A DNA stretch of 64,000 nt, taken from Desulfobulbaceae bacterium (GTDB lineage: Bacteria > Desulfobacterota > Desulfobulbia > Desulfobulbales > SURF-16). Positions 28,663 through 48,082 of the stretch are shown here, piece by piece (within the stretch, counting starts at the first letter, position 1; each line of letters starts with the position of its first letter). The DNA is taken from positions 1 to 64,000 of the forward strand of contig JAGXFQ010000008.1 in assembly GCA_024637145.1 (NCBI GenBank), read 5' to 3'. The notes below the pieces were generated by a model. It saw only the letters and a program-made list of their open reading frames with translations, ran no database searches and had not been told where the DNA came from. The position numbers and the translations under genes were made by a program.

Positions 28663-29181
28663 TTAGACTTTGAACTCCGCCAAGCGGCGGCAAGCCTCTT
28701 GCTGAGACGGAGAGAGTTTGCTCTGATCCAGGTCCTGGAGACCAGACTGGATCAGAGCCACACGTCCCTGCAGCTCAACAATGCTCTCATTCACCACGGC
28801 AACAAAATCCTGAAGGGTATCATTCTGCCGCAAATTGACTTGAACGGTGAGATCGCCCCCACCCACCCGACGCAGGTCTTTCTCCACATGGTAGAGGGGG
28901 CCTGCTATCTTCTGGGGCAGAAACAGGGCAAGGGATATGCCGCTCAGCAGGCTCACCGCAGAGCCTGCCAAAATCACCGGCAACAGCAGGTCACTGACCC
29001 GGCGTACCGTAATGTGGGCCGTATAAAAAGAATCACCGATCTCTTGGCGCCCATAAAAATAGAGGATAAGGGCTGCCACGCCAGCACAGAGAAGCACTGT
29101 CCCAGCAATCCGCACCAGAAGCCAGCGCTGAAACTTATTTTTTACAGCCATATTCAACTTCTTTCTCTGATATTTTTCCAT
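28663..29181 (-). CDS. Two-TM membrane protein with HAMP-like segment
   Basis: TM WLLVRIAGTVLLCAGVAALILYFY and LLLPVILAGSAVSLLSGISLALFL followed by PQKIAGPLYHVEKDLRRVGGGDLTVQVNLRQNDTLQDF; AAGGAAGG SD. Confidence 0.75.
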   Translation of the reverse strand: MEKYQRKKLNMAVKNKFQRWLLVRIAGTVLLCAGVAALILYFYGRQEIGDSFYTAHITVRRVSDLLLPVILAGSAVSLLSGISLALFLPQKIAGPLYHVEKDLRRVGGGDLTVQVNLRQNDTLQDFVAVVNESIVELQGRVALIQSGLQDLDQSKLSPSQQEACRRLAEFKV

Positions 29182-29202
29182 AACGGCCTTCCTTGCTCCA
29201 TA

Positions 29203-30369
29203 TTAGCCAAAATTACGATGACAGCCCAGACAGAGTTCTTTGCGACTTGCCCGGGTCAAACGATACTCATGCTCTGAGGCATGGGCCTGATGACAGGACA
29301 TGCAGCTCAAACGACCATCAGCCAAGGTCTGATAATCAGGGGGGATAACCATACCGGCCTTGGGAGCGATATCCACCGGATGTGAACGTACTCCATGGGA
29401 CTGGGGGTGACAGCCGACACAGACGGTTATTGTCAAAGAGCGACTGTCCGTCAAGGCAAGATGATCCGCAGGGGTTTTGGCAGCCATGCCATCCCCCATT
29501 GTCCTTAAGGCCTGCTGAGCACTTTGGCCCAGCCGCATGGTGACCGGCTGATTGCCGGCAAAGTGGGCAAAAAAACGGCCCTCCTGTTGATAAAAGGCGG
29601 CCTGCAGCGCCACGTTGTCCGGGGCCGCAGCAGGTTGCCGGGCCGCCCTGGCAAAGAAATTCCTGGTGGAGAGAGTCATGGCCGGGGAACTCACCTCATT
29701 GCCGGCAATATCCCGGGAGACAGCGACAAATTTGTACTCCCGGTTAGCAGCCAGGCCGGCAAGGGTGATCTCATGGTCAGTGGCCCAGCAATGATCCACT
29801 GCGGTTGTCGAACTGAGCTCTTCTTTGCCAAAAAACAGCTGAGCATTGGCAAGGCGGTTCGTCTTCCAGGCAATACGGGCCGAAACAAAAACCCCTTTTT
29901 TTACCTCCACCAGGTGCAGGTCTGAAATTTTTCCCTCCCCAGGTGGCCCTGGAAGAGGTGGTAATTGGTCAAGGGCGGGCAGCGCCACCTCCTGCGCCAG
30001 GATCTTGCCGCTGCCCGCCGTGGCCAAAAGAGCAATGGTCGTGCCTGCCAAAGAGGAGGGTAACTCAAACCAATGCTCCTTATTTTCCTGACAGGCCCTG
30101 GCAAACCAGGAGACCTCATCTGGGAAATCTTCAGCAACCACAGCCGGCTCCGCAGAAGAGAGCCCACCCCTGACATGGCAGACAGCGCAATTATTTTCGA
30201 GAAAAGGGGCATGCACATAGAGTTTGGTATCACTCTGTTGACAGACATCCCCATGGCAGCGGCAACACTGGGCCGGCATGATGGTGTCGCCGGCCTCACT
30301 CTGCTCTGCAGAAAAAAAGAGCCCCAGTAAGGCAGCGATCACCAAGAGAGGTATCTGCAATCTATACAT
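29203..30369 (-). CDS. Exported pentaheme cytochrome with fibronectin-III-like domain
   Basis: CCRCH, CAVCH, CVGCH, CMSCH, CLGCH; central VSARIAWKTNRLANAQLFFG...HEITLAGLAANREYKFVAVSRDIAGNE FN3-like. Confidence 0.88.
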   Translation of the reverse strand: MYRLQIPLLVIAALLGLFFSAEQSEAGDTIMPAQCCRCHGDVCQQSDTKLYVHAPFLENNCAVCHVRGGLSSAEPAVVAEDFPDEVSWFARACQENKEHWFELPSSLAGTTIALLATAGSGKILAQEVALPALDQLPPLPGPPGEGKISDLHLVEVKKGVFVSARIAWKTNRLANAQLFFGKEELSSTTAVDHCWATDHEITLAGLAANREYKFVAVSRDIAGNEVSSPAMTLSTRNFFARAARQPAAAPDNVALQAAFYQQEGRFFAHFAGNQPVTMRLGQSAQQALRTMGDGMAAKTPADHLALTDSRSLTITVCVGCHPQSHGVRSHPVDIAPKAGMVIPPDYQTLADGRLSCMSCHQAHASEHEYRLTRASRKELCLGCHRNFG

Positions 30370-30407
30370 AACAATCCATCTTCCTATCAAAAATGCCTAT
30401 GGGCTCT

Positions 30408-46721: not shown

Positions 46722-46910
46722 ATTTCCCCCCATTTGTCAGGCAGCGAACCAACCGCGGCAATCAGCAAGGACCCCCCAGCGCTCTAGCGGTGGCCACCCT
46801 ACCCAAATTCAAAACAGCAAAAATCCGGCAACGATCACTCCTGCAGGTAGACAGCAGCCCTTTTTTGGGCGGGCAGGCGCGCTCCTTCCGGCACATAAAC
46901 AAGGAACATC

Positions 46911-46956
46911 AAAACACCGCAGCGGCCCATGCATCCGGAGCCGTTGCGGTGTTTTT
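46911..46956. terminator. GC-rich hairpin with T tract between two cytochrome genes
   Basis: ACACCGCAGCGGC...GCCGTTGCGGTGTTTTTT; 13-bp stem with one mismatch; longer T tract on + strand, TTTT on - strand. Confidence 0.65.
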
Positions 46957-46987
46957 TCAGCACAGGCGCTGTCAAACCATCGTGGGA

Positions 46988-48082
46988 TTACAGATCATCC
47001 TTGGTGGTATGGCAGGCAAAGCAACCCGTGCTGTTGTCTCCGGCATGCGCGACCATGCCGGTATAATCCCAGCGCAGCATGTCGGCATTGGGCGAGCCAT
47101 GGACCCGGTGGCAGGACACACAAGTGACAATGGCATCACCAGCGGCTTGTAAAACAATGGACCGCACAGAGGCCAGGTCATTACTGGCCACCGGCACACC
47201 CGGCAGGTAGTCATTATTAATACCGCCATAAGCACCATACTCCGTAGCGCTTACCTGATTCATATCAAAATCGGTAGGGTGGCGGATCCAGGGACTGCTC
47301 ATAGCATCCGCGAGAACCCCATCGGTCCCGGCCACATCAGCATGAAAGGTGCCATGGCAGGCGGCACAGAGGGCGCTGATGGTCACCGGGTTTCCACTTC
47401 CGTCAACAGTAGCGGTACTTTCCAAAGAACGGTCTATGCCATAATATTGATTATGGAGTAAGGCAGTGGGCGCCTTCTCCCAGGTGGAATCCTCAATACC
47501 CTTGACGCCAAGAAGCATGCGATAACTGTTGACCAGGTCGCCGCCATTCATGGTGCCGTCCGTGGTATCGGCCTTGCCGTGGTGGGCGCCGCTCACCGCC
47601 CCGAATTGGGTCGATGCGGCCCTGTCGCCGTGACAGCCATTAGTGCCGGCACAGGTGAGCTGGGCAGTCAAGGCAGAACCGCCAGGAGGCACATTAGCCA
47701 ACAACGAATCCGCGGTATTGATATCTAAAACATTGTGGCCAAAAGTTTGATCGTCATTAACCCAGGCAAAATTGCCGCCGGCCAGATCCATGGTTTTATT
47801 CGTATCAAAAACATAGGGCGTGCCGGAAGTGGAGCTGTTGTTCCCGGTATGACAGGCTACACAACCCGTCTTGATCAAAAGGGCCATATTGGGAGTCGTT
47901 GTTGCGACCCCATCCGCATCAACAGCCATGGAAACCCCACCCTGGCTATTATGCATGGTATGGCAATTACTACAGGGCTGGTTTTCACCCATCCTGGCCA
48001 GAGCCGGCGAAACCAGGAGGCCCACCAACACAGCACCTAACACCGGTGCCAACATCCTTTTTTGGTGAAAATATTTCTTCAT
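46988..48082 (-). CDS. Exported pentaheme cytochrome (5 CXXCH plus one CX5CH)
   Basis: CSNCH, CVACH, CAACH, CVSCH, CFACH and CAGTNGCH; signal peptide; closely similar to 33179-34255. Confidence 0.93.
   Translation of the reverse strand: MKKYFHQKRMLAPVLGAVLVGLLVSPALARMGENQPCSNCHTMHNSQGGVSMAVDADGVATTTPNMALLIKTGCVACHTGNNSSTSGTPYVFDTNKTMDLAGGNFAWVNDDQTFGHNVLDINTADSLLANVPPGGSALTAQLTCAGTNGCHGDRAASTQFGAVSGAHHGKADTTDGTMNGGDLVNSYRMLLGVKGIEDSTWEKAPTALLHNQYYGIDRSLESTATVDGSGNPVTISALCAACHGTFHADVAGTDGVLADAMSSPWIRHPTDFDMNQVSATEYGAYGGINNDYLPGVPVASNDLASVRSIVLQAAGDAIVTCVSCHRVHGSPNADMLRWDYTGMVAHAGDNSTGCFACHTTKDDL

What the first reader, a model, noticed from the sequence alone, without database searches (positions are those of the whole stretch)
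28663..48082. Putative outer-membrane extracellular-electron-transfer conduit with about 79 hemes in one co-directional locus
Seen: a continuous run of minus-strand genes encoding seven multiheme cytochromes (5, 14+2 atypical, 26, 16, 5+1, 8 and 5 CXXCH), a non-heme outer-membrane beta-barrel, a PpiC/SurA PPIase, an NHL propeller, a YVTN propeller lipoprotein, three CsgG-like proteins and a HAMP-like membrane protein. Several genes overlap by a few nt, which suggests translational coupling. Known: porin plus multiheme cytochromes is the logic of Mtr- and Pcc-type conduits, and conduits combining a barrel, PPIase, NHL protein and large cytochromes have been proposed in Desulfobacterota (e.g. 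Oet-type loci in ANME partner bacteria, from memory). Inference: this is such a conduit. The addition of three CsgG-like proteins and the 26/16-heme tandem may make it a distinct variant.
Basis: partly seen in the sequence, partly recalled or inferred. Interest (0 to 1): 0.92.

Follow-up and report, generated by a model that had tools for sequence, protein, structure and literature searches.

The report
Oet-type outer-membrane electron conduit operon
This is a fifteen-gene operon, with its own regulator, that very probably wires electrons through the outer membrane to cytochrome nanowires outside the cell; it belongs to a conduit type already described in sulfur-cycling and methane-partner bacteria, although its conserved ring-protein-like genes and a natural 42-heme fusion in relatives seem not to have been noted before.

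Summary
In detail: 15 same-strand genes at 28663-48082 carry 79 CXXCH motifs (0.8 expected by shuffling), plus a beta-rich barrel candidate, PPIase, NHL and YVTN propellers and PelC/CsgG-like lipoproteins. An outer-membrane electron conduit of the Oet type is supported; a distinct variant is not. The propeller/16-heme/26-heme/PPIase set is the published core operon (PMC5539420; named Oet in PMC10553843). CsgG-like genes 1 and 2 are core too, present in 37 of 38 loci examined across the phylum. The 26-heme tree groups the window with copy 1 of Desulfurivibrio alkaliphilus, whose two OmcS-like genes match, by gene spacing, DA_756 and DA_765, up-regulated during Fe(III)-oxide respiration on sulfide (PMC12545173). 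The two pentaheme proteins are OmcS-family nanowire candidates (E 4e-23) with a sixth CX5CH site. New here: a recurrent sigma54-like site beside an NtrC-type regulator; a second, Geobacter-type copy in the same genome; and, in one related family, fusion of the 26- and 16-heme proteins into one 42-heme lipoprotein (6 of 6 intact loci). The barrel fold model failed, so threading of the wire through the barrel remains inferred.

The parts
48722..50077 (-). NtrC-type sigma54 activator (receiver, AAA+, Fis HTH), likely regulator of the operon
   Evidence: Pfam Response_reg, Sigma54_activat, HTH_8; same position in Desulfobulbaceae BM506 (82-88%) and D. alkaliphilus copy 1 (60%)
48359..48374 (-). 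Sigma54-like -24/-12 site GGGCATGTTTTTTGCT
   Evidence: 10 of 12 consensus positions (10 of 300 shuffles reach 10); matching sites CGGCATGGTATTTGCT and TGGCATGCAACTTGCT before the same gene in L003 and L071
46988..48082 (-). OmcS-like nanowire cytochrome candidate (5 CXXCH + CX5CH)
   Evidence: family profile without any OmcS orthologue hits OmcS 6ef8 at E=4.3e-23; distal His of CHTMH invariant
44964..46733 (-). 14-heme cytochrome with two CX3CH motifs, N-terminal Ig-like domain; present only in close relatives
   Evidence: 4 of 38 loci plus one truncated locus
42824..44911 (-). Outer-membrane beta-barrel candidate (OetI position) with a discoidin-like insert at about residues 280-395
   Evidence: beta-strand-rich model, low confidence (pLDDT 41); OMP_b-brl hits in 2 of 14 relatives; insert resembles galactose-oxidase F5/8 domain, E 0.06
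42004..42690 (-). PelC/GNA1162/LpoB-like lipoprotein (CsgG-like 1)
   Evidence: LpoB 25.7 bits over cut-off 22.3; profile hits 5t11 2e-6, PelC 9h80 5e-5, GNA1162 4hrv 8e-5 (5t11 is a PelC entry from memory); Cys55 invariant in 17 homologues
40463..41986 (-). CsgG-like N-terminus plus Ig/FN3-like repeats (CsgG-like 2)
   Evidence: LpoB hits in 5 of 15 members, FlgD_ig in 11 of 15; AF2 pLDDT 58, fold matches are Ig/Fn domains with low TM
39879..40481 (-). PelC/FlgT-like lipoprotein (CsgG-like 3)
   Evidence: profile hits PelC 9h80 at 3e-4 and FlgT at 0.006; lipobox LSGC, Cys21 invariant in 13 homologues
38257..39915 (-). PpiC/SurA-type PPIase, core gene
   Evidence: Rotamase_2 E=9e-18; 64% to BM506
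36339..38291 (-). 26-heme cytochrome lipoprotein, core gene
   Evidence: 26 CXXCH, lipobox LASC; MtrA/DmsE-type repeats 277 bits over cut-off 192
35176..36372 (-). 16-heme cytochrome, Sec signal, core gene
   Evidence: fused to the 26-heme protein in 6 genomes of another family
34265..35203 (-). NHL (six-bladed) propeller, core gene
   Evidence: Pfam NHL; 36 of 38 loci
33179..34255 (-). Second OmcS-like cytochrome (5 CXXCH + CX5CH), 60% identical to the first
31899..33209 (-). 8-heme cytochrome, accessory
   Evidence: 13 of 38 loci
30408..31865 (-). YVTN-type propeller lipoprotein
   Evidence: lipobox LAGC; 34 of 38 loci
29203..30390 (-). 5-heme cytochrome with an FN3-like middle (read from sequence), OetF candidate
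   Evidence: travels with the next gene
28663..29181 (-). Two-helix membrane protein with HAMP-like segment
   Evidence: no Pfam hit; 71% in BM506; retained beside the FN3 cytochrome in several classes
28631..28651 (-). Terminator-like hairpin just after the last gene
   Evidence: consensus match only
24766..25629 (+). 12-heme cytochrome (OmcX-like candidate), associated neighbour
   Evidence: 12 CXXCH; homologues next to the operon in L080, L081, L103, L104, L110
50683..51726 (+). Thioredoxin-like (AhpC/TSA) + TPR protein, associated neighbour
51810..52994 (+). 10-heme cytochrome, associated neighbour
   Evidence: homologues flank L071, L072, L100
53214..54512 (+). NHL propeller protein, associated neighbour
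   Evidence: homologues flank many homologous operons

Best explanation
The locus is an Oet-type trans-outer-membrane electron conduit operon with its own nanowire subunits. An NtrC-type activator switches on a sigma54 promoter before the first gene. The 26-heme lipoprotein and 16-heme protein, both built of MtrA-like repeats, form one continuous heme wire held in or at the beta-barrel; PelC/CsgG-like lipoproteins probably form a collar on the inner face of the outer membrane; the PPIase and propellers help fold or dock the cytochromes. The two OmcS-like hexaheme proteins polymerise outside and carry electrons to an external acceptor, most likely Fe(III) oxide, or exchange them with a partner cell. 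Shown: gene content, conservation, OmcS kinship, orthology to the D. alkaliphilus copy. Inferred: threading through the barrel, the collar, polymerisation, and the direction of flow in this organism.
For: Core set matches the published operon and the Oet description with barrel, OmcS-like and FN3 cytochromes. Synteny in 38 loci across the phylum. The 26-heme tree puts the window with D. alkaliphilus copy 1 (98/99). D. alkaliphilus identity rests on published DA_402 and recA primers found in G007; DA_402 lies directly before the barrel of copy 2, and the spacing DA_765 to DA_756 (9 genes) equals that from the first to the second OmcS-like gene in copy 1; those three genes are reported up-regulated on ferrihydrite. 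OmcS profile hit. The 42-heme fusion links the 26- and 16-heme proteins. Sigma54-like site recurrent in three species.
Against: The barrel model is of low confidence (pLDDT 41), so lumen and strand number are untested. No sequence relative of the barrel has a solved structure. PMC5539420 reports that homologous cytochromes were not expressed in several metal reducers during metal respiration. The mapping to DA_756 and DA_765 rests on gene spacing, not on locus tags read directly. No expression data exist for this organism.
Confidence: 0.85

Rival explanations
1. Same conduit, opposite direction: it takes electrons up from a partner (DIET, as proposed for ANME partners) or from minerals, feeding sulfate reduction.
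For: Oet clusters occur in ANME partner bacteria and were proposed for electron uptake; the genome encodes DsrAB.
Against: The nearest studied orthologue is reported up-regulated with ferrihydrite as electron acceptor, and its reductive-type DsrAB is described there as running in reverse.
Confidence: 0.3
2. It is mainly a secretion and assembly system for cytochrome nanowires: barrel plus PelC/CsgG-like collar plus PPIase export and fold the OmcS-like subunits, and the large cytochromes are only a terminus.
For: PelC and CsgG belong to outer-membrane export systems (established knowledge); similarity of the lipoproteins to PelC; PPIase and propellers in the core; OmcS-like genes flank the barrel.
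Against: The 26- and 16-heme genes are as constant as the barrel, and OmcS-like genes are absent from two fetched loci, L113 and L114.
Confidence: 0.2
3. A periplasmic electron store or capacitor with no trans-membrane function; the barrel is unrelated.
For: PMC5539420 read the four core proteins as periplasmic without membrane attachment.
Against: Barrel gene in all 38 loci (selected by barrel only in the class set), lipoboxes on the 26-heme protein in many loci, OmcS-like subunits in the same operon.
Confidence: 0.07

Closest known systems
Oet (OetABI) conduit / 16+26-heme operon of SEEP-SRB1, Ca. Desulfofervidus, Desulfuromonadales (PMC5539420, PMC10553843)
   Same: six-bladed propeller, 16-heme, 26-heme, PPIase in a row; barrel; OmcS-like and FN3 cytochromes
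   Different: here the third CsgG-like gene, an 8-heme and a 14(+2)-heme cytochrome are present; all of these recur in relatives. The assignment of OetA and OetB to the 16- and 26-heme proteins is my inference
Desulfurivibrio alkaliphilus AHT2 operon copy 1 (DA_756 to DA_765 by spacing) and copy 2 with DA_402 (PMC12545173)
   Same: gene order nearly identical from the NtrC-type regulator to the FN3 cytochrome; the OmcS-like proteins carry the same CX5CH motif
   Different: the window has the extra 14-heme gene; its OmcS-like pair has 5+1 hemes where DA_402 has 6+1
OmcS nanowire of Geobacter sulfurreducens (6ef8)
   Same: profile match over most of the length, distal CHTMH histidine kept
   Different: only 29% identity to the OmcS orthologue of the same genome; one heme site is CX5CH
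MtrCAB and OmaB-OmbB-OmcB (Pcc) conduits
   Same: logic of barrel plus multiheme wire; MtrA/DmsE-type repeats in the 26-heme protein
   Different: no recognisable MtrB or OmbB relative in the family searches; far more hemes; PPIase, propellers and PelC-like lipoproteins added
PelC / GNA1162 / CsgG / FlgT lipoproteins
   Same: profile similarity of CsgG-like 1 and 3, lipobox cysteine
   Different: no Pel or curli genes nearby; one of the three carries Ig-like repeats

Membership tests
Oet-type conduit | 16-heme + 26-heme + PPIase + six-bladed propeller in one operon | tested here: met
   definition in PMC5539420
Oet-type conduit | outer-membrane barrel OetI in the cassette | tested here: inconclusive
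   beta-rich protein in the right place, homologous to barrel candidates across the phylum, but low-confidence model and no direct comparison with OEU57520.1
Oet-type conduit | OmcS-like or OmcX-like extracellular cytochromes nearby | tested here: met
   OmcS profile hit E=4e-23; the 12-heme neighbour at 24766 is an OmcX candidate, OmcX itself not compared
Oet-type conduit | orthology with a named member (D. alkaliphilus has two copies) | tested here: met
[quoted passage not shown]
   needs deletion and electrochemistry
OmcS-type nanowire subunit | homology to OmcS | tested here: met
OmcS-type nanowire subunit | six hemes | tested here: inconclusive
   5 CXXCH plus conserved CX5CH
OmcS-type nanowire subunit | distal His for heme coordination across subunits | tested here: met
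   CHTMH His invariant; that this is the bridging His is from memory, the bridging principle from PMC12307469
OmcS-type nanowire subunit | forms filaments | not testable with these tools
   needs microscopy
MtrB/OmbB porin-cytochrome complex | sequence kinship of the barrel with MtrB or OmbB | tested here: not met
   no such family in Pfam, NCBIfam or PDB searches
PelC/CsgG-like ring lipoproteins | CsgG/PelC-type domain and lipobox | tested here: met
   CsgG-like 1 and 3; weak for CsgG-like 2
PelC/CsgG-like ring lipoproteins | ring oligomer | not tested
   no multimer prediction available

The most novel reading that the evidence does not exclude
The Oet conduit is a larger machine than described: a PelC/CsgG-like lipoprotein ring under the barrel, conserved phylum-wide, holding a single continuous 42-heme wire that is split into 26- and 16-heme proteins in most lineages and made as one 42-heme lipoprotein in one family.
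Probability: 0.3. Interest if true: 0.75.

Novelty: new member of a known kind. Interest (0 to 1): 0.42.

Why it matters
The genetic core of this conduit has been known since 2017, but how its wire crosses the membrane is not. The conserved PelC/CsgG-like genes and the natural 42-heme fusion give concrete, testable parts for a model, and the D. alkaliphilus orthologue with published expression data offers a culturable organism in which to test it.

Tried and rejected
The CsgG-like 2 model (pLDDT 58) matched only Ig/Fn domains at low TM, so it does not confirm a CsgG fold. Single-sequence PDB searches of the barrel and the first pentaheme protein found nothing. A sigma54 scan of the whole window was at chance level; only the comparison of three upstream regions was informative. 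A literature search for a 42-heme cytochrome found nothing relevant in the held library, nor did searches joining CsgG or PelC with multiheme conduits. Rejected: that the CsgG-like trio or the 26/16 tandem marks a variant. Rejected: that the 42-heme ORF is an assembly slip; it lacks the 16-heme signal peptide and recurs with exactly 42 motifs in six genomes.

Full report
Observation. The window holds fifteen co-directional minus-strand genes between 28663 and 48082 with exactly the CXXCH numbers reported, 79 in all; shuffled versions of the same proteins give fewer than one on average. Pfam confirms doubled-CXXCH cytochromes, a PPIase, NHL and YVTN-like propellers and one LpoB/CsgG-like lipoprotein. 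Both pentaheme proteins also carry CX5CH; 48 of 58 relatives keep it, and the ten that lack it have six or seven ordinary motifs, so it is probably a real sixth heme site. Its nearest named relative is Desulfobulbaceae bacterium BM506, which has all fifteen genes plus the regulator in the same order.

What is known. PMC5539420 (2017) described an operon whose core is a six-bladed propeller, a 16-heme and a 26-heme cytochrome and a PPIase, in SEEP-SRB1, Desulfuromonadales, Ca. Desulfofervidus, Thermodesulfobacterales and, in two copies, Desulfurivibrio alkaliphilus. PMC10553843 (2023) named the Oet conduit, with barrel OetI, OmcS-like and OmcX-like cytochromes and an FN3-domain cytochrome OetF, and noted its presence in Desulfobulbia. 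The window has each of these elements, so the 26/16 tandem is the hallmark of the known system, not a new variant.

Comparative anatomy. Barrel homologues occur in 62 of 199 genomes of the class. In 38 fetched loci with a 26-heme gene, barrel is present in 38, CsgG-like 1 and 2 in 37 each, PPIase in 35, 16-heme and NHL in 36 each, YVTN in 34 and CsgG-like 3 in 23. These counts carry selection: class loci were picked by barrel and phylum loci by CsgG-like 1, but CsgG-like presence in the first set, and barrel and 26/16-heme presence in the second, are independent of the choice. The few PPIase, 16-heme and NHL absences mostly reflect the score threshold, the fused locus L082 or the rearranged locus L083. 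So the CsgG-like proteins belong to the conserved core. CsgG is not mentioned in the main text of PMC10553843, and PMC5539420 speaks only of variable surrounding genes; figures and supplements were not available to me. CsgG-like 1 and 3 match PelC, GNA1162 and FlgT profiles and have invariant lipobox cysteines.

Orthologue with expression data. G007 is D. alkaliphilus AHT2: the RT-qPCR primers for DA_402 and recA printed in PMC12545173 match it exactly, and its size, 3,097,763 bases, agrees with my memory of that genome. DA_402, the cytochrome up-regulated more than 100-fold in cells growing on sulfide with ferrihydrite, lies directly before the barrel in copy 2. The paper's other two OmcS-like up-regulated genes, DA_756 and DA_765, are nine genes apart, exactly the distance between the two OmcS-like genes of copy 1, and interpolation from DA_402 and recA places them within about 25 kb of copy 1 (an inference, not a read locus tag). 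The 26-heme tree groups the window with copy 1 (98/99), while a second cluster in the same genome, on contig C32 (L065), groups with loci that carry OmcS-type hexaheme genes, the Geobacter-like type.

Nanowire subunits. A profile of the pentaheme family made without OmcS orthologues finds OmcS (6ef8) at 4e-23 across most of its length. The CHTMH distal histidine is invariant; that OmcS subunits are bridged by a heme-His bond is stated in PMC12307469, and that the CHTMH histidine is the one involved is from memory.

Wire. The 26-heme protein scores 277 bits (cut-off 192) against the DmsE-family (MtrA-like) decaheme model in six stretches, so it looks like a string of MtrA-type modules. In a related family (f6) the 26- and 16-heme genes are one ORF with exactly 42 CXXCH, one lipobox and no second signal peptide, in 6 of 6 genomes with an intact locus, three genera. 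This Rosetta-stone fusion argues that the two proteins are adjacent parts of one wire and constrains topology: a single polypeptide must be periplasmic, surface-exposed or membrane-spanning. It fits a wire through the barrel but does not prove it.

Regulation. An NtrC-type activator lies upstream on the same strand, and a sigma54-like site is found before the first cytochrome in the window, in BM506 and in D. alkaliphilus copy 1. The window site alone is modest (10 of 300 shuffles reach its score); the support is its recurrence. A terminator-like hairpin follows the last gene.

Limits. Direction of electron flow in this organism is unknown: DsrAB is present, which fits sulfate reduction or, as in D. 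alkaliphilus, sulfide oxidation. PMC5539420 reported no expression of homologous cytochromes in several metal reducers during metal respiration, which stands against a universal Fe(III) role.

Verdict. A real, well-preserved member of the Oet conduit family, orthologous to a D. alkaliphilus operon with published expression data. The novelty lies in two comparative findings, the phylum-wide PelC/CsgG-like genes and the 42-heme fusion, both of which need structural and genetic tests.

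Noticed in passing
L120-L125 (G192, G064, G101, G174, G081, G039): 26-heme and 16-heme genes fused into one 42-heme lipoprotein in six genomes of one family of the same order, without an internal signal peptide.
   Followed up: yes
L065 (own genome, contig C32:46500-63831): A second, divergent cluster of the Geobacter type: OmcS-like hexaheme, YVTN, barrel, CsgG-like 1-2, PPIase, 26-heme, 16-heme.
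   Followed up: partly
window 33179-34255 and 46988-48082: The two OmcS-like genes are 60% identical to each other, more than to their positional counterparts in BM506, with one tract at 91% nucleotide identity, which suggests gene conversion.
   Followed up: partly
window 42824-44911, residues about 280-395: Discoidin (F5/8)-like insert in the barrel protein, weak match to galactose oxidase; possible surface-binding domain.
   Followed up: no
L110, L113, L114: The FN3-cytochrome and HAMP-like gene pair sits between CsgG-like 2 and a CsgG-like 3 candidate, so the pair moves as a unit within the operon.
   Followed up: no
window 24766-25629, 51810-52994, 53214-54512: 12-heme, 10-heme and NHL genes on the plus strand flank the operon and recur beside homologous operons; likely part of the wider system.
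   Followed up: partly
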